A stretch of 40,198 nt of DNA from a virus. Below the pieces are notes generated by a model. It searched no databases, was not told the origin of the DNA, and saw only the letters and a program-made list of their open reading frames with translations. The position numbers and the translations under genes are program-made. Position 1 is the first letter of the stretch. The number at the start of each line of letters is the position of its first letter. The stretch lies in the IMG/VR virus record IMGVR_UViG_3300050821_006725, positions 1 to 40,198 of that record; one strand, written 5' to 3'. Positions 968 to 40,178 of the stretch are shown piece by piece.

Positions 968-1978
968 ATGCCCGTTTATGGTAGTGGTATAGTCCCGGCC
1001 GCGGGCAGCGTGCAGGCAGAATTAACCGCGTTAACCCGCCGAGCCTTCGTGCCGAAGATGTATGTCCAAATATATAATACATGCCCAGCATTGGCGGCCC
1101 TCTTCGCGCACAGCCAGACCGCCTACGGTGGTGTCTCAAGCGTGACCGCCCCGGTGCAAGGCGCGCCGTATGTGAACACGTCTCAGACCGACTACAGCGG
1201 CACGTTTGCGCAGCCGGCGCAGCAGCAGGGCGCGTTCCCGGCCGAGTTCAATTTGAAGGCCAGCATCACGCCGATCCCGTTTTACGGCATGGAAGCCGCC
1301 TTGCAGTTCAACCACGCGGTGATCCCGATCGTGGAAGCGCGCATGAACGACTCGGTTGCGAGCCAGCGCGACTTTTTAGGCAATGCGCTCTATAACAACT
1401 TCTCGAACAACTTGCAGATGATCGGCTTCCCCGGCGCGATCGATGACGGCACGAACTTGGTCACTTACGGGAACATCAGCCGCATTGCCAACACGTGGTG
1501 GCAGAGCAAGGTCTATGCGGCGGGCTCGGTCGCCCCGACGCGCAAGTTGGTCTTTCAGTACACGGTAGGTGTCAACAAGAACGGCGCCGAAATGCCCACC
1601 TTTGGCCTGATGGGCTTCGGCACCTTTGCTAACCTCGCGAATGATTTCATCGGCAATGAGTCATACCAAATTCAGCCGGGCCGCGGCTTTGACTCGGACG
1701 CTGACCGGCCGCGCGCGGCGTTCCGGGCGCTCGATGTCGGCGGGGTGCCGATCTATGGCGATCCGTATTGTCCTGAGGGCATCCTGTACTTGGTGAATGC
1801 CAACTACATCAACTTGTACGTGCACGAGCAGGCGGCATTCTCCTTCACCGGGTTCGAGTCCCTGTTGTCAAACTACCAGTTAGGCTACATTGGTGCGGTG
1901 CTCACCTTGTGCGAACTCGTCAACGTCAAGCCTCGCGCGCACGGTCGCGTGTCTGGCTTCACATTCTTGCCAATTTGA
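968..1978 (+). CDS. Major capsid protein
   Basis: Protein of 336 residues that would assemble into the head shell. It follows the scaffold-like gene (interrupted only by the opposite-strand HNH gene) and precedes the head-tail genes, the usual place for the capsid gene. The C-terminal part has the pattern typical of phage capsid proteins: 'GVPIYGDPYCPEG' followed by a segment on which the chain reads as beta strands (residues about 257-290). A GGAG ribosome site at 958-961 supports the ATG at 968. Processing is not expected because no long N-terminal delta domain is visible. Assignment rests on position, length and pattern, not on a search. Confidence 0.8.
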   Translation: MPVYGSGIVPAAGSVQAELTALTRRAFVPKMYVQIYNTCPALAALFAHSQTAYGGVSSVTAPVQGAPYVNTSQTDYSGTFAQPAQQQGAFPAEFNLKASITPIPFYGMEAALQFNHAVIPIVEARMNDSVASQRDFLGNALYNNFSNNLQMIGFPGAIDDGTNLVTYGNISRIANTWWQSKVYAAGSVAPTRKLVFQYTVGVNKNGAEMPTFGLMGFGTFANLANDFIGNESYQIQPGRGFDSDADRPRAAFRALDVGGVPIYGDPYCPEGILYLVNANYINLYVHEQAAFSFTGFESLLSNYQLGYIGAVLTLCELVNVKPRAHGRVSGFTFLPI

Positions 1979-4250: not shown

Positions 4251-5798
4251 ATGAGCCAGCAAGTTTCCTTAAAAGACGAAGAGCCGCGGCGCACCAAGAT
4301 CTTCACCAAGTTCAAGGGTGTGGTCAACAACTCGGCGCGCAGCGCCTTGCCGGATGACGCCTGGTTTTACCTTGAGAACTTACACCCGATTGGCGATGCC
4401 AACATCCAGACGGTGCAGAACATTTCTGCGGCGCTGTTCGATTACACCACGCACTCGATTTACTGGTCGCAGTACGCGAATGTAAACGGGAACGATTATC
4501 TGATTTCCTTCGGCACCGATGGCACGGTGCACGCCTACAACATATCGGCGGCGACCAATACGCAGATCTTTGCCGCGCTCTCTGGATCTGGGTCCCGTAG
4601 CGCGCAGTGGAAGAACACGCAACTGCTTGTCATTGATTCGACCGGATACTACAACTGGCCAGGGAGCGGCACTCTCACGCTGATCTCAGGAACCGGAGTC
4701 CCATCGAACGGCACGGATATTGCGGTGGCCTTTGGCCGCGTGTGGATACTGCAAGGTCGCCTTATAACCTTTTCTGGCGCGAATGATTTTACTGCCGCCT
4801 CGTTCTTGGTCGCCAATGGCGCCGGCTCCGTGGCGCTCACCGATCCAACGCTGCGAACCTACATCACGAGACTACAAGCGCAGAACGGGTATCTGTACCT
4901 GATCGGCCCAACCGGCATCAACGTGATCTCCGATGTTTACGTTCCCTCAGGAGCCTCCCCGCCTACGCCTCTGTTCACGAACCTGAACATCCAAGCGATT
5001 ATTGGCAGCGATGAACCGGGCTCGATCTTCGCGTTCAACCAAGCGCTGGTATTCGCAAATCACTCCGGCATCTGGATGCTGTACGGCACGAACGCGCAGA
5101 AGATTTCCACCGACATCGACGGCACGTGGAAGTATGTAGACTTCACGCAGATCATCTCCGGTGGGCAGTTCGTCGATAACAACATCCTTTCGCACGCGAT
5201 GTTGATCAAGCGCTTGAATGATCCGAACTTCGGGAGCAATACGGTGCTTGCGTGCTGGAGCGATAATAAATGGTGGTTCGCGAACTTCGGCGCGCTCACC
5301 TTCGTGGTCTCCGCCATCGTCAATATCAACGCACTGACGGCGAATGAGCCGGCGCTTTTTGGCTTCATCGGCAATAAGCTGTATCAACTATTTGCGCAAG
5401 TAGCGATACCTCCTGCCACGATGGCGATGACGCCGCTGTGGCCGATGGAGGATCAACTCGCGGATAAGCAGTGCATCCGCGCAGGATTCGAGGTCGTGAT
5501 ATCTAGCTTCTCCGGGACCTTCGGCATGACGGTCGATTCGACCAATGCGTCTAGTCAAGCGGTCACACTCTCGACTTCAGGCAATGTGACCTGGATCAAT
5601 AATTTCGCAAACCAAGTTCTATGGCAGAACAATTCTTTGGTGACGGTGCAGTGGTTCACCGGCGTGTACTTGCTCTACAACGCAACGTCACCTGGAGTGT
5701 ACGGCAAGTATTTAGGCGCTACGATTTCTGCGAGCGCCTCCGCGTATCAATTATCCTCCGTAGCCTTGGATTACAAGCTGCGGGCAAGGTGGAACTGA
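4251..5798 (+). CDS. Tail nozzle / packaged-DNA stabilisation-type protein
   Basis: Protein of 515 residues, almost entirely beta, with repeated short strands such as 'YLISFGTDGTVHAYN' and 'LVFANHSGIWMLYG' that suggest a beta-propeller. P22 gp10 and related nozzle proteins close the portal channel beneath the adaptor and have this size and character. It starts three bases after the adaptor stop and ends two bases before the tail-fibre gene. Family membership is inferred from architecture and gene order; a different tail structural protein is possible. Confidence 0.6.
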   Translation: MSQQVSLKDEEPRRTKIFTKFKGVVNNSARSALPDDAWFYLENLHPIGDANIQTVQNISAALFDYTTHSIYWSQYANVNGNDYLISFGTDGTVHAYNISAATNTQIFAALSGSGSRSAQWKNTQLLVIDSTGYYNWPGSGTLTLISGTGVPSNGTDIAVAFGRVWILQGRLITFSGANDFTAASFLVANGAGSVALTDPTLRTYITRLQAQNGYLYLIGPTGINVISDVYVPSGASPPTPLFTNLNIQAIIGSDEPGSIFAFNQALVFANHSGIWMLYGTNAQKISTDIDGTWKYVDFTQIISGGQFVDNNILSHAMLIKRLNDPNFGSNTVLACWSDNKWWFANFGALTFVVSAIVNINALTANEPALFGFIGNKLYQLFAQVAIPPATMAMTPLWPMEDQLADKQCIRAGFEVVISSFSGTFGMTVDSTNASSQAVTLSTSGNVTWINNFANQVLWQNNSLVTVQWFTGVYLLYNATSPGVYGKYLGATISASASAYQLSSVALDYKLRARWN

Positions 5799-24656: not shown

Positions 24657-25043
24657 TCACAATCTTTTCCCAAAGTTGAATATCCGTCTCAGCAGCGACT
24701 TGCGCGGCGTGATGACGTAGAACTTGCGCACGTATTCCTGCACCGTCCACTGCCAGCGAGTACCAGCCGGAAACTGCATCGAGTCACCGACATCGAGGCG
24801 ATGCAGGGTCTCGTACTTATCCCCCATCTCGCGCACGAACACTGCACCGGCTAGGATAAACACCAGTTCATCGTCGGTGTAGCGCCACTCGAACTGACCG
24901 GCTGTCGCGTCCCACAAACCAGCATCGATGCCCTGGATGCTGAGCGGACGGCAACGAAATTTCGGGTTGCAGATGCGCCACCAGTTTTGCGGGAGGGGCG
25001 AATCGTGCCATCCGGAGTCGTCGTCTTGGAATTGGATGCTCAT
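24657..25043 (-). CDS. Cupin-fold protein
   Basis: Protein of 128 residues with the pattern of the cupin_3 group: 'GQFEWRYTDDELVFILAGAVFV', then 'LDVGDSMQFPAGTRWQW' and 'RKFYVI'. Metal ligands typical of catalytic cupins are mostly missing, with Glu replacing His positions, so it may bind a small ligand rather than catalyse. Its ATG overlaps the integrase stop. A metabolic-type passenger gene is unusual at this place in a phage. Confidence 0.75.
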   Translation of the reverse strand: MSIQFQDDDSGWHDSPLPQNWWRICNPKFRCRPLSIQGIDAGLWDATAGQFEWRYTDDELVFILAGAVFVREMGDKYETLHRLDVGDSMQFPAGTRWQWTVQEYVRKFYVITPRKSLLRRIFNFGKRL

Positions 25044-25849
25044 CGCAGTGGCTGAACTTCGCGCCGGTTCCGATCGTAAACCCCGCGCGTCATCTTCGGA
25101 TCAATGTGCCCTGCGAGCAGATACGCGTTATCGAAACTTGGATTGTCGCTGATCGACTTAGCGCGCAGGTCATGGTAGTGAAACCGCTCGTGCCCGGCAT
25201 TCTCCCACTGGCGGCAATAGCGTTGCCACATCGCCCTAAAGCCATCCTCGCTGTATCGCTTGCCCAACTTCGTTCGGATCACGTACTCGCGCGGCCAGTG
25301 AGGATGCATCAGCCAAGCGCGATCCAGCACCTTCTCAACGGTCGGAGAGATCACGATTGCGAGTTTCTTGCCGGTCTTACCCTGATCGATCTCGATTTTG
25401 TTGTCCTTCAGTTGCGACCACTTAAGTCCAATGATGTCCCCCTGGCGCTGGCCGGTGAGCAGCGCCAAATCCATGGCGATCTGTACTTGCGCGCACGTCG
25501 TCGCACGAAACGCTTCGAACTCCTCGGTGCTCACGTACCGATCCCGTGGGCGCGTCGGCCAGCGCTCGACGCCCGTGCATGGGTTTCGCAGATCGTCCTC
25601 AATGCACCATTTTCCGATCGCCTTTTTGAACACCGTCGACAGTATTGTGACCATGCGGTTTCGGTGGATGCGCCCTTTCTTGACCTGCAGGAAGTCAACC
25701 ACCATGCGAGGCGTCACTTCTTTAGGCTCGAAGCGGCCAAACGTGGCGCGCAGCTGCACCAGTATGTTGCGGTAGTCGCGCTGCGATCGTGGTTCGAGGT
25801 TAGGGATACATTCATCCTCGTAGCGCGCGAACAGATCGTTCATGCTCAT
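25040..25849 (-). CDS. int: Tyrosine-family site-specific integrase
   Basis: Protein of 269 residues, short for the family because it lacks an extended arm-binding domain. A core-binding SAM-like domain (about 1-85) precedes the catalytic domain. The catalytic set is complete: Arg135, Lys158 or Lys161, His226-x2-Arg229, His248 and Tyr258. It would integrate phage DNA at an attB site. Unusually it is embedded mid-operon, with ATGA overlaps to a lipoprotein gene upstream and a cupin gene downstream. No attP core can be picked out without a host sequence. Confidence 0.93.
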   Translation of the reverse strand: MSMNDLFARYEDECIPNLEPRSQRDYRNILVQLRATFGRFEPKEVTPRMVVDFLQVKKGRIHRNRMVTILSTVFKKAIGKWCIEDDLRNPCTGVERWPTRPRDRYVSTEEFEAFRATTCAQVQIAMDLALLTGQRQGDIIGLKWSQLKDNKIEIDQGKTGKKLAIVISPTVEKVLDRAWLMHPHWPREYVIRTKLGKRYSEDGFRAMWQRYCRQWENAGHERFHYHDLRAKSISDNPSFDNAYLLAGHIDPKMTRGVYDRNRREVQPLR

Positions 25850-37124: not shown

Positions 37125-38795
37125 GTGATCATCCCGCACGCTCCCGCGGATGCCTTCGCCTTCTATCAGGATACGATGCGCAAGTGCACGGCGACGCGCA
37201 GCGAGAGACGCGCCCGCTACAACACGCTGCGCATGTACTACTCCTACGGCGCGGACCCTTCGCAGACTCAAGGGCCGGTGTACAACAAAATTTTCAGTTC
37301 TGTCGATCAAGTAGCCTCCTTCATGTACAGCCACGAGACGACGCGCTTTACGATCGAACTAGGAGAGTCCGTATCGACCGATTCGAAGGTCGGGGAGACT
37401 CGGAAAATTCCCGCGATGAAGTACGCGCTCTCGAAGGAATGGAACGCGAGCAACACCGACATCATTTTTGGATCCTCGATCCTCTGGGCCTTTGCCTTAG
37501 GATCCATGTTCGTGAAAGCAATCCCCGGCACCAAGGGCTCGATCATGCCGGGCGTGGTGGATCCGGAGGACCTCTCCGTGCTTCGCGAGGATGTGATGGG
37601 CCTGTATAACCAAGAGGCCTTCGTTCACTCCTACCTGATCACGAAAACCCAGCTCGCCAACGAACTCACCATGGCGGAGCACAAGCGTAAGGGCGAGATC
37701 TTGGAGCGCGTCACCGGTTCCCCGCGCACGCAAAACCAAGGCGATGGCGGCGTGTTCGATCACATCGTGGTCTCGGCCGTGACGCCCAATATCGTGGGCG
37801 CGCTCAGGGGCGGAATGTGGACCAACATGGCTCAGTTTACGAAAGCGAAGGTCTCCGAGTCATTGATCGAAATGCACGAGCTGTACGTCTTCGATGATGC
37901 GATTGATGACTATCGCATGGTCACGCTCGCCGCGCCCGAGGAGATCATCTGGGATCGGCCGCTAGAGCGCGCTTTCCTAAAAAACGAGTTGCCCTTCGTG
38001 CAGATTTGCCCCAGCCCTAATCCGCACTACTTCTACGGGGACTCGGAAGTGGAGCGCTTGATTCCCTTGCAGGAGAAATTAAACCGCAGGTTGGAAGAGA
38101 TCGATCACTTGTTGGAATTGCAAGCCAAGCCGCCTAAGTCCGCGAGCGGCTACTCCTCGCCGATCGATGAAATTGCGCTCGCGATGGATAGTCCAAACGG
38201 CTTGGTCAACACCGATATGCCGGGCGCCAAGATGGACGTGCATTCTCCAGCAATCCCGGAGGATCTGTACCGCGAGGTGCACGAGATCATCTCGATGTTC
38301 GATGACATCATTGGCCTGACCAACATCAACCAGGGTCGCGGTGAGCCTGGGGTTCGTAGCCAAGGCCACGCCTCGCAGCTCTCTCGACTGGGGAGCTCAC
38401 GCATCAAAAAGCGCGCGCTGGTCATTGAGGATTCCTTGGAAAAACTAGCTACCCTGTACCTGCAAATAAAACGCCGCTACGACAAGCGCCGCATGCGCGC
38501 GACCGAGGGCGAGGAGTTCATCGCCGCGCAGTTCACGGATGATTTCATTGCCAAGGTCGACGCGCACTCCAACTCTCCCATCTTCATGGAGGATCAGACG
38601 GCGCTCGCGTTCAAGTTGTTTGAGGTCAAGGCCATTGATCGGGATGAACTCTTGGACTTAGTCGAAGTGCCGATGCGCGAGTTGCTAAAGGAACGCTTAA
38701 AAGCTAAGATCGAACCGGCGGAAGCCCAGGCGGCGTCCGAGGCTCACAAGCTAGAGGAACGCAAGCTGCAATTGCACGTAGGCGGTAAGAAGTGA
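37125..38795 (+). CDS. Portal protein
   Basis: Protein of 556 residues that forms the dodecameric DNA entry ring. The chain fits short-tailed phage portals: a helical start with 'TRSERRARYNTLRMYY', a long central helix ('IPLQEKLNRRLEEIDHLLEL', about 308-327), 'MFDDIIGLTNINQGRG' (about 391-408) and a helical basic C-terminus. Size and position between terminase and scaffold agree. Starts with GTG right after the previous stop. Confidence 0.88.
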   Translation: MIIPHAPADAFAFYQDTMRKCTATRSERRARYNTLRMYYSYGADPSQTQGPVYNKIFSSVDQVASFMYSHETTRFTIELGESVSTDSKVGETRKIPAMKYALSKEWNASNTDIIFGSSILWAFALGSMFVKAIPGTKGSIMPGVVDPEDLSVLREDVMGLYNQEAFVHSYLITKTQLANELTMAEHKRKGEILERVTGSPRTQNQGDGGVFDHIVVSAVTPNIVGALRGGMWTNMAQFTKAKVSESLIEMHELYVFDDAIDDYRMVTLAAPEEIIWDRPLERAFLKNELPFVQICPSPNPHYFYGDSEVERLIPLQEKLNRRLEEIDHLLELQAKPPKSASGYSSPIDEIALAMDSPNGLVNTDMPGAKMDVHSPAIPEDLYREVHEIISMFDDIIGLTNINQGRGEPGVRSQGHASQLSRLGSSRIKKRALVIEDSLEKLATLYLQIKRRYDKRRMRATEGEEFIAAQFTDDFIAKVDAHSNSPIFMEDQTALAFKLFEVKAIDRDELLDLVEVPMRELLKERLKAKIEPAEAQAASEAHKLEERKLQLHVGGKK

Positions 38796-38833
38796 CACAT
38801 CGCAAAGGACACCGGCGTAAAATGCGCCGCTGA
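38792..38833 (+). CDS. Basic micro-peptide (13 aa)
   Basis: GTG at 38792 overlaps the portal stop (GTGA) and opens a 13-codon frame for MTHRKGHRRKMRR, with eight Arg/Lys residues and two His. The coupling is of the same kind as for the normal genes here. Paired with a second basic 13-mer 92 bases downstream. Translation is unproven. Confidence 0.4.
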   Translation: MTHRKGHRRKMRR

Positions 38834-38925
38834 TTTTGAAGGCTCCCTCAAGGAGCAGATCGCGATCCGTAGTAAGGTCGCGGAGCTATAAGGCCACGGT
38901 CTTGACACTTGAAGGAGAATCCACC

Positions 38926-38967
38926 ATGGCACGACGTGGCCGGCGCGGTAAACACAAGCGCAAGTAA
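38926..38967 (+). CDS. Basic micro-peptide (13 aa) with strong ribosome site
   Basis: A consensus GAAGGAG site lies eight bases before the ATG, opening a 13-codon frame for MARRGRRGKHKRK. The stop is four bases before a strong intrinsic terminator. Perfect signals on both ends for such a short frame argue for a real product. It could bind DNA, RNA or the portal/scaffold during packaging; unknown. Confidence 0.6.
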   Translation: MARRGRRGKHKRK

Positions 38968-38971
38968 GATG

Positions 38972-39002
38972 AACGGCCCCCACTTGCGGGGCCGTTTTTT
39001 TT
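38972..39002 (+). terminator. Strong intrinsic terminator inside the late operon
   Basis: AACGGCCCC, a seven-base loop, GGGGCCGTT and a run of eight T. It follows the second micro-peptide by four bases and lies 19 bases before the next gene. With no promoter visible after it, head genes downstream would need read-through, antitermination or an unseen promoter. Confidence 0.93.
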
Positions 39003-39020
39003 GGGGCACACTTCGGCGCA

Positions 39021-39434
39021 ATGCCGATGCCTCCACCACCTGGCGCTCCTCCCCCTGGCGGCCCACCTGCGCCGATGCCGCAAGGCGCGGGACCTGCGGA
39101 CAACGCGCCGCGCGCCTCCCCGATGATGACCCCGCAAGTTCCGGCCGGCGAGATGGAGGAGGCAAAAGTCCAAGTCTCGATGGCGCTCAAAGTACTGACC
39201 AAAGCGCTGGCCGTTTTCGGACCATCAAACCCCAAAGGTCATGCACTGCTCTCGGCCATCAAGACGCTAGCCAAGACCTTTGGGAGCGATGAGGAATCCA
39301 CGGAGGAGTTGCAACCTGCGGCGATAAAGCAGATGCTCGCAGGTATAGGAGGCCCTGGGACGCCGCCGCCGGGCGGTCCACCTCCGGGAGCGCCACCGGG
39401 ACCACCACCAGCCGCGCCGCCGATGGCGGCTTAA
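39021..39434 (+). CDS. Pro-rich protein between portal and scaffold
   Basis: Protein of 137 residues with Pro/Gly-rich ends (residues 1-40 and 111-137) and a helical core ('AKVQVSMALKVLTKALAVFG', about 48-68). Start ATG 39021 has a weak ribosome site close after the terminator. Proteins of this composition occur between portal and scaffold genes of related phages as I recall; function not known. Confidence 0.7.
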   Translation: MPMPPPPGAPPPGGPPAPMPQGAGPADNAPRASPMMTPQVPAGEMEEAKVQVSMALKVLTKALAVFGPSNPKGHALLSAIKTLAKTFGSDEESTEELQPAAIKQMLAGIGGPGTPPPGGPPPGAPPGPPPAAPPMAA

Positions 39435-39449
39435 AGAGGATCAAGAGAC

Positions 39450-39677
39450 ATGCCAGGCACACGACTTTTCAAACCGAACGACTCGTTGGATGTTCCGGAC
39501 TTGCAGAACAACACCAAGGATCGCGGCATGTTCGTGGTTCCGCCGACCTACGCGGAATTGGGCGGACTCTCAAGCGCCGATGCCACCGGCATCCACAAGA
39601 ACGGCGCGACCATTCGCATGCCGAATGCGACTCAGTCGAAAGTCCCTGAAACCACCACCGCCAAGAAGTCGGCCTAA
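39450..39677 (+). CDS. Small head-region protein (75 aa)
   Basis: Ribosome site AGAGGA lies before the ATG at 39450. The chain is polar with a basic tail ('TTTAKKSA') and no recognised motif. Its stop directly precedes the GTG of the scaffold-like gene. Probably a head component. Confidence 0.65.
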   Translation: MPGTRLFKPNDSLDVPDLQNNTKDRGMFVVPPTYAELGGLSSADATGIHKNGATIRMPNATQSKVPETTTAKKSA

Positions 39678-40178
39678 GTGTCGCTCGAAGACCTCACATC
39701 AGAGCAACGCGCCTACCTCGCCGCCGGCGAGCTGCTCCTCAAGAACCCGGAAGTCGCGATGGAGGCCAAGCGCTTGATCAAGAAAGTCAAGCCCGATGTG
39801 CGCTTTCAGGACTTGGAAACTCACGAGCAGATCGTCGCCTCGACCGCATCCTTGAAGGCCGAGCAGGAAAAGATCACCGAAGCGATCAACAAGGCTAACC
39901 TGGAGCGCAAGTTCGAGGAGCAGCGCGCCAAACTTCGCGCCGATGGGATCGATGTCGAGGCGCTCGAAGCCTTCATGAAGGAAAACGAACTGTATTCCTA
40001 CGAGAAGGCGGCGAAGATTTTCAAGCAGGTGAACCAGTTGGCGCCTGCGACCCCGCACTCGCTCATGCAGGACATGGACTTGCCGGACGCGAAGGCGTTT
40101 TGGCAAGACCCGGTCAAGGCCGCGCGCGCGGAAGCTGAGAAGTATTTCACAGAGCGCGGTATTATCCGGCGCCAGTAA
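39678..40178 (+). CDS. Scaffold-like protein
   Basis: Protein of 166 residues, nearly all helical, with a long charged coiled coil ('SLKAEQEKITEAINKANLERKFEEQRAKL', about 58-90) and a basic C-terminus ending 'ERGIIRRQ'. This composition and its place just before the capsid gene are typical of a head scaffold. Starts with GTG directly after the preceding stop. The last 77 bases are repeated at the left end of the window. Confidence 0.7.
   Translation: MSLEDLTSEQRAYLAAGELLLKNPEVAMEAKRLIKKVKPDVRFQDLETHEQIVASTASLKAEQEKITEAINKANLERKFEEQRAKLRADGIDVEALEAFMKENELYSYEKAAKIFKQVNQLAPATPHSLMQDMDLPDAKAFWQDPVKAARAEAEKYFTERGIIRRQ

What the first reader, a model, noticed from the sequence alone, without database searches (positions are those of the whole stretch)
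38792..38967. Two consecutive 13-residue, highly basic micro-ORFs between portal and an internal terminator
GTG at 38792 (overlapping the portal stop) and ATG at 38926 (with an ideal GAAGGAG site) both open 13-codon frames whose products are mostly Arg, Lys and His. The second ends four bases before a strong terminator. Two equal-length basic peptides next to each other are unlikely by chance in this compact genome. They may be virion or packaging peptides, or leader peptides controlling the downstream terminator.
Basis: partly seen in the sequence, partly recalled or inferred. Interest (0 to 1): 0.7.

Follow-up and report, generated by a model that had tools for sequence, protein, structure and literature searches.

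The report
Conserved tiny polybasic phage gene pair
Between the portal and head genes of a large, uncultured and mostly freshwater group of phages lies an unannotated pair of genes only about 13 codons long that make small, strongly positively charged peptides; evolution has preserved the peptides, in many relatives with a folded RNA element between them, so they probably do a real job such as neutralising DNA during head filling.

Summary
GTG 38792-38833 (MTHRKGHRRKMRR) and ATG 38926-38967 (MARRGRRGKHKRK) are the only 9-18-codon ORFs with at least 60% K/R/H on either strand of the 40-kb window. A large group of IMG/VR phages with related portals (42% identity and up) carries the same arrangement: 138 of 144 dereplicated loci have 1-3 basic 9-18-aa ORFs between portal and scaffold/capsid genes, usually two (105). 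Blind DNA-pattern scans for the peptides landed just downstream of a related portal in 227 of 228 interpretable cases. Substitutions are mainly synonymous (dN/dS-like 0.18 and 0.38), so translated peptides are under selection.

In the sister clade, though not in the window's own clade, a covarying H-type pseudoknot lies between the two ORFs, about 10 nt upstream of ORF2's ribosome site. It has no Rfam match; a blind scan found it only in front of this micro-gene. The leader-peptide reading is disfavoured for the family but stays open for the window.

Best mechanism (inferred, about 0.45): protamine-like nucleic-acid-binding peptides serving head assembly or DNA packaging, with the pseudoknot as an autogenous-type translational operator where present. 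The genes are well shown; the function is untested.

The parts
37125..38795 (+). portal protein gene (GTG start), anchor of the locus
   Evidence: phrog_1216 portal E=1.2e-4; Pfam SU10_portal E=7e-7, 28.5 bits, just below its cut-off of 30; 44-47% identical to proteins annotated 'portal protein' in MW202825 and MW202753
38792..38833 (+). micro-gene 1: GTG start overlapping the portal stop, 13 aa MTHRKGHRRKMRR
   Evidence: L001 counterpart MTHRKGHRRRMRR, 8 nt differences, 6 at third positions, 1 amino-acid change (simulated p=0.00025); positional counterparts in sister clades, e.g. MYKKMKRGRKTRR
38834..38925 (+). 92-nt spacer between the two micro-genes; hairpin GCTCC-CTCAA-GGAGC (38842-38856) also present in L001; canonical family pseudoknot absent here
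   Evidence: window fold not significantly stable (z -1.22)
38911..38917 (+). Shine-Dalgarno GAAGGAG of micro-gene 2
   Evidence: a Shine-Dalgarno match of 4 nt or more precedes 255 of 257 family micro-ORFs, but that set had been filtered for a Shine-Dalgarno except near the portal stop
38926..38967 (+). micro-gene 2: ATG, 13 aa MARRGRRGKHKRK
   Evidence: L001 counterpart MAKRGRRGKHKR, 6 nt differences in 12 codons, 1 amino-acid change (p=0.007); sister-clade forms MARKARKGRKGRK, MRKGRKGRKSRK etc.
38971..39004 (+). intrinsic terminator GAACGGCCCC-CACTTGC-GGGGCCGTTT + T-run
   Evidence: similar terminators follow the pair in L001, L002, L003, L008, L009
39021..39434 (+). next gene, 137 aa, Pro/Gly/Ala-rich, no family match; first gene of the downstream stretch that leads to the major head protein
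   Evidence: similar ORF in L001 7860-8306
39678..40178 (+). 166-aa protein just upstream of the capsid gene, candidate scaffold (by position only)
968..1978 (+). major head protein; in L001 the same gene (336 aa) follows the 166-aa ORF directly, so the window reads as a circular genome opened between them
   Evidence: phrog_9953 major head protein E=1.3e-20; L001 9110-10120

Best explanation
The two ORFs are genuine tandem micro-genes of the head region. They make polycationic peptides (median +8 in 10-15 residues, almost no acidic residues) that bind nucleic acid non-specifically. Most likely they act during head assembly or DNA packaging as counter-ions/condensing peptides for the packaged DNA, or at the portal-terminase-DNA interface, i.e. 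protamine-like. In the sister clades an H-type pseudoknot about 10 nt upstream of the second gene's Shine-Dalgarno probably sets its translation, plausibly autogenously through peptide binding. In the window's own clade that element is missing; in the window and L001 the first gene is start-stop coupled to the portal gene. SHOWN: real conserved ORFs, synonymous-biased divergence, strict position, Shine-Dalgarno sites, pseudoknot covariation in the sister clade. INFERRED: nucleic-acid binding (from composition), role in the head (from position), autogenous control (by analogy with T4 gene 32).
For: Only two such ORFs in 40 kb. 138 of 144 dereplicated loci have 1-3; in the 59-locus set, 53 have at least one Shine-Dalgarno-preceded micro-ORF vs 13 of 1,770 shuffles and 1 of 59 reverse strands. 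Blind DNA scans for the peptides hit downstream of a homologous portal in 227 of 228 cases with enough DNA. dN/dS-like 0.18 and 0.38 in the portal-selected set; third codon positions vary about twice as much. 3 acidic residues in 3,274. Copy number varies 1-3 with the same composition, as a dosage-type polycation would allow. Always beside portal and ahead of capsid genes. Pseudoknot: 94.4% of cells paired, 79 double-change cells vs 19.3 +/- 3.6 shuffled; blind pseudoknot scan 50 of 50 directly upstream of a basic micro-ORF and 47 of 47 downstream of the portal.
Against: No proteomics, binding or virion data; the only annotated relatives found are uncultivated records. A 13-residue peptide may be unstable in cells. 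Nothing computed separates DNA condensation from RNA binding or a host target. The pseudoknot is absent from the window's own clade, so it is not needed for whatever the pair does there.
Confidence: 0.45

Rival explanations
1. RNA-directed role: the basic peptides are minimal arginine-rich RNA-binding peptides whose main job is post-transcriptional control of the head genes (binding their own mRNA or pseudoknot, or acting on terminators), not DNA packaging.
For: Arg-rich short peptides commonly bind structured RNA (general knowledge); a conserved pseudoknot sits between the ORFs and is tied to ORF2; terminators follow the pair in the window clade.
Against: The pair persists in clades without the pseudoknot, including the window's; no conserved RNA target was found there; no Rfam match.
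Confidence: 0.22
2. Leader/attenuator: translation of ORF2, whose stop is 3 nt before the terminator, lets the terminating ribosome block the terminator stem and so couples scaffold/capsid transcription to translation; the peptides themselves are by-products.
For: In window and L001 the terminator starts 3-4 nt after the ORF2 stop, the next gene starts about 17 nt after the T-run, and no promoter-like site was found in 38600-39500, so downstream transcription may need read-through.
Against: Amino acids are conserved while codons change; in L002, L003, L008, L009 the terminator lies 17-26 nt away and in most of the family no T-run terminator was detected (21 of 137); TTGACA within 220 nt in 100 of 137; a leader needs neither two or three ORFs nor a fixed peptide sequence.
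Confidence: 0.15
3. Host-directed micro-peptides: polycationic peptides that act on host nucleoid, ribosome, polymerase or membrane.
For: Small, strongly charged accessory genes with host targets are common in phages (general knowledge).
Against: Position tightly locked to the portal-capsid interval in divergent phages, unusual for host-takeover genes; no hydrophobic or amphipathic pattern (composition).
Confidence: 0.13
4. Chance ORFs in a GC-rich gap, or remnants of a portal read-through extension.
For: The portal frame stays open for about 31 codons after its stop in the window (read).
Against: All statistics above; the extension is not conserved in sequence in L001 (read); codon-position bias fits the micro-ORF frames.
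Confidence: 0.02

Closest known systems
Small basic packaged viral proteins (phiX174 J, adenovirus mu/pX, baculovirus P6.9)
   Same: Short, Arg/Lys-rich, encoded with structural genes; proposed role is charge neutralisation or condensation of the packaged genome (recalled knowledge).
   Different: J, mu and P6.9 are longer or cut from precursors and serve other virus types; here tailed-phage genes directly encode two or three 10-15-residue peptides. No virion evidence.
T4 gene 32 autogenous pseudoknot operator (PMC535899)
   Same: An RNA pseudoknot (about 28 nt in T4; 28 nt plus linker here) 5' of the ribosome site of a gene whose product is, or here may be, a nucleic-acid-binding protein.
   Different: Different sequence and gene; present only in the sister clade, not in the window; no repression data.
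Leader-peptide attenuators
   Same: Short ORF ending next to an intrinsic terminator, in the window and L001.
   Different: Peptide rather than codon identity is conserved, often two or more ORFs, terminator spacing not conserved, promoter-like element after it in most relatives.
Lambda N-type arginine-rich antitermination peptides
   Same: Arg-rich and short.
   Different: N is far longer with RNA-polymerase-contacting regions (recalled); a boxB-like element was not looked for.
Surveys of phage small genes (review PMC11323111)
   Same: Unannotated phage small proteins under about 50 aa.
   Different: The review's text does not use the words capsid or packaging. I could not check whether larger small-gene surveys already list this family.

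Membership tests
Packaged protamine-like viral peptide | short, strongly basic, nearly no acidic residues | tested here: met
   median +8 in 10-15 aa; 3 acidic of 3,274 residues
Packaged protamine-like viral peptide | encoded among virion/packaging genes | tested here: met
   between portal and scaffold/capsid genes
Packaged protamine-like viral peptide | present in the virion bound to the genome | not testable with these tools
   needs virion mass spectrometry
Leader-peptide attenuator | ORF ends next to an intrinsic terminator | tested here: inconclusive
   met in window and L001 (3-4 nt); 17-26 nt in L002, L003, L008, L009; T-run terminator detected in only 21 of 137
Leader-peptide attenuator | regulatory codons rather than peptide conserved | tested here: not met
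   synonymous codon changes, conserved residues
Leader-peptide attenuator | downstream genes depend on read-through | tested here: inconclusive
   no promoter-like site in the window; TTGACA in 100 of 137 relatives
T4 gene 32-like autogenous pseudoknot operator | H-type pseudoknot upstream of the ribosome site | tested here: inconclusive
   met with covariation in the sister clade; not met in window, L001-L003, L008-L010
T4 gene 32-like autogenous pseudoknot operator | gene product binds and represses its own mRNA | not testable with these tools
   needs binding and reporter assays
Any Rfam RNA family | covariance-model match | tested here: not met
   no relevant match; weak hits far below gathering scores
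Any Pfam or PHROG protein family | profile match of the longest family micro-peptides (21-25 aa) | tested here: not met
   the 13-aa forms are too short to scan

The most novel reading that the evidence does not exclude
A large clade of tailed dsDNA phages carries genome-encoded protamine-like micro-peptides: two or three separate 10-15-residue polycations made next to the portal and packaged with, or used to package, the DNA, with autogenous control through a dedicated H-type pseudoknot in much of the clade. This would be a packaging or condensation aid that I know of in no tailed phage.
Probability: 0.3. Interest if true: 0.87.

Novelty: new variant of a known kind. Interest (0 to 1): 0.72.

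Why it matters
Genes of 13 codons fall below the usual length limits of gene callers, so these conserved genes are unannotated; in MW202753 two hypothetical ORFs are called on the opposite strand over them. If the peptides are packaged they would add an unrecognised component to tailed-phage heads and bear on how packaged DNA is neutralised. If they act on RNA they are among the smallest conserved regulatory proteins, paired with a new pseudoknot family. Either way the conservation makes the role testable with synthetic peptides or small deletions once a member is cultured.

Tried and rejected
Portal stop-codon read-through: the frame is open in window and L001 but the sequence is unrelated. 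Megablast and tblastn against the phage records: only two uncultivated Manatee Spring records. Rfam at gathering and lenient thresholds: nothing relevant. Pseudoknot as a sequestrator of the ORF2 ribosome site: mean probability 0.06 that the site pairs with the pseudoknot region. Canonical or generic H-type pseudoknot in the window clade: none. A micro-ORF equivalent in SU10, whose portal family the window's portal weakly matches: a short gap, then a 78-aa ORF that is not strongly basic. Window-type peptide pattern in IMG/VR: only the contig already held as L001. Literature searches: none of the titles or abstracts listed describes such a gene pair. AlphaFold not used: 13-mers are uninformative.

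Full report
OBSERVATION. Both frames exist exactly as described. GTG 38792-38833 encodes MTHRKGHRRKMRR and overlaps the portal stop as GTGA; ATG 38926-38967 encodes MARRGRRGKHKRK, with GAAGGAG 8 nt upstream and a 10-pair terminator starting 3 nt after its stop. On both strands of the 40,198-base window they are the only ORFs of 9-18 codons with at least 60% K/R/H. In 2,000 dinucleotide shuffles of the 608-nt region, 3 contained one Shine-Dalgarno-preceded basic micro-ORF and none contained two.

RELATIVES. A portal search in IMG/VR gave three relatives at 51-82% identity. L001 (82%) has MTHRKGHRRRMRR and MAKRGRRGKHKR, again with a GTG overlapping the portal stop and a terminator. L002 and L003 (51-52%) both have MRRHKRKTRR, followed by MRRKRRGRKSKR or MARKKRRGRKSRR, each with a terminator behind. 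The phage records MW202825 and MW202753 have MYKKHKRSRKTRR + MARKARKTRKGRK and MRKAYKKTRKTRR + MARAKRKGRKARK. A portal alignment reached 566 loci, of which 80 were kept, plus nine genome contigs. In a dereplicated set of 59, 53 carry at least one Shine-Dalgarno-preceded basic micro-ORF within 600 nt of the portal stop, against 13 of 1,770 shuffles and 1 of 59 reverse strands.

In a larger set of 144 dereplicated loci, 105 have two, 7 have three, 26 have one and 6 have none by the filter; part of this set was found with peptide patterns, so its counts are enriched (the portal-selected part alone: 58 of 64 with at least one). Of the six, L031, L034 and L093 have basic ORFs that fail the length or Shine-Dalgarno filter and L029 has three micro-ORFs about 1.1 kb from the portal, leaving L092 and L095. 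Portals of loci with at least two micro-ORFs are as little as 42% identical.

BLIND TEST. Of matches with enough upstream DNA, 227 of 228 lie 167-479 nt downstream of a homologous portal match on the same strand.

CODING. Window versus L001: ORF1 has 8 nucleotide differences, 6 at third positions, 1 residue change; ORF2 has 6 in 12 shared codons, 4 at third positions, 1 residue change; simulated p = 0.00025 and 0.007. In the portal-selected set, where no peptide sequence was used to find the loci, third codon positions have about twice the entropy of the others and nearest-neighbour dN/dS-like ratios are 0.18 and 0.38. These ratios come from short sequences that had passed a basic-content filter, so they are indicative. 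Residues are 32% R and 29% K, 3 of 3,274 acidic; 249 of 257 starts are ATG. The high share with a Shine-Dalgarno partly reflects the filter.

PSEUDOKNOT. In the sister clade the median 75-nt gap between the ORFs carries a small hairpin and then nGGGTrTGGCTgcyTnCCCn ... ArGTGrCC. Read as an H-type pseudoknot (4-bp and 8-bp helices), 59 distinct sequences give 94.4% paired cells versus 82.1% shuffled and 33-58% when the partner is slid, and 79 cells with changes on both sides versus 19.3 +/- 3.6. The 28 columns used join the two conserved blocks with the variable linker left out, and the sequences were located by partly conserved motifs, which raises the baseline pairing; the double changes are the stronger evidence. 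Three positions of the second helix mismatch in some subclades. A blind pseudoknot scan found 50 of 50 usable new hits directly upstream of a basic micro-ORF and 47 of 47 downstream of the portal. It ends about 10 nt before the Shine-Dalgarno. It follows ORF2, being present where ORF1 is not detected (e.g. L015, L107, L149). Rfam has no relevant match. It is absent in the window, L001-L003 and L008-L010; the window spacer folds no better than shuffles.

CONTEXT. In L001 the gene order is portal, micro-genes, a Pro/Gly-rich ORF, a 75-aa ORF, a 166-aa ORF, major head protein (the matching window head gene is phrog_9953). The same order in the window, read across its ends, makes it look like a circular genome opened just before the capsid gene. 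The exact TTGACA occurs within 220 nt after the last micro-ORF in 100 of 137 relatives, which suggests, without proving, a separate promoter for scaffold and capsid; full promoter matches were found in 31 versus 15.6 in shuffles. The window has no such site.

MECHANISM. A polycationic product, conserved peptide, portal-adjacent position and variable copy number fit a dosage-type nucleic-acid counter-ion best, hence the packaging/condensation model at about 0.45. The RNA-directed model (0.22) draws on the pseudoknot but must explain its absence from the window clade. The leader model (0.15) is open only for the window and L001. Control resembling T4 gene 32 (pseudoknot operator upstream of the ribosome site, PMC535899) is an analogy, not membership.

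VERDICT. A real, conserved, apparently undescribed tandem micro-gene family with an associated pseudoknot in its sister clade. Existence is near certain on sequence evidence; function is inferred.

Noticed in passing
L004, L005 and other portal relatives, spacer between the two micro-ORFs (e.g. L005 4800-4850): Strongly covarying H-type pseudoknot family upstream of the second micro-gene, without Rfam match.
   Followed up: yes
MW202753 (L319) 4740-4877 and 4874-5038, minus strand: Annotated hypothetical ORFs lie antisense over the micro-genes and are likely mis-calls.
   Followed up: partly
mostly 30-90 nt downstream of ORF2 in sister-clade loci: TTGACA box, probably the promoter of the scaffold/capsid genes; not found in the window.
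   Followed up: partly
window 38793-38891: Portal frame stays open after its TGA for about 31 codons; also open in L001 but not conserved in sequence.
   Followed up: partly
L005 4573-4737 and the same position in L004: Unknown 54-aa ORF between portal and ORF1, absent from the window clade; no PHROG match.
   Followed up: partly
L029 2943-3963: About 1 kb of extra DNA between the portal and three micro-ORFs.
   Followed up: no
L045, L050, L054, L103, L122, L127 micro-ORFs: Cys replaces Arg near the C-terminus in several peptides (GRKCRR, GRKSCK, GRKQCR).
   Followed up: no
window 25040-25849 (-): Integrase-like gene (phrog_1, E=1.5e-40) in the window phage.
   Followed up: no
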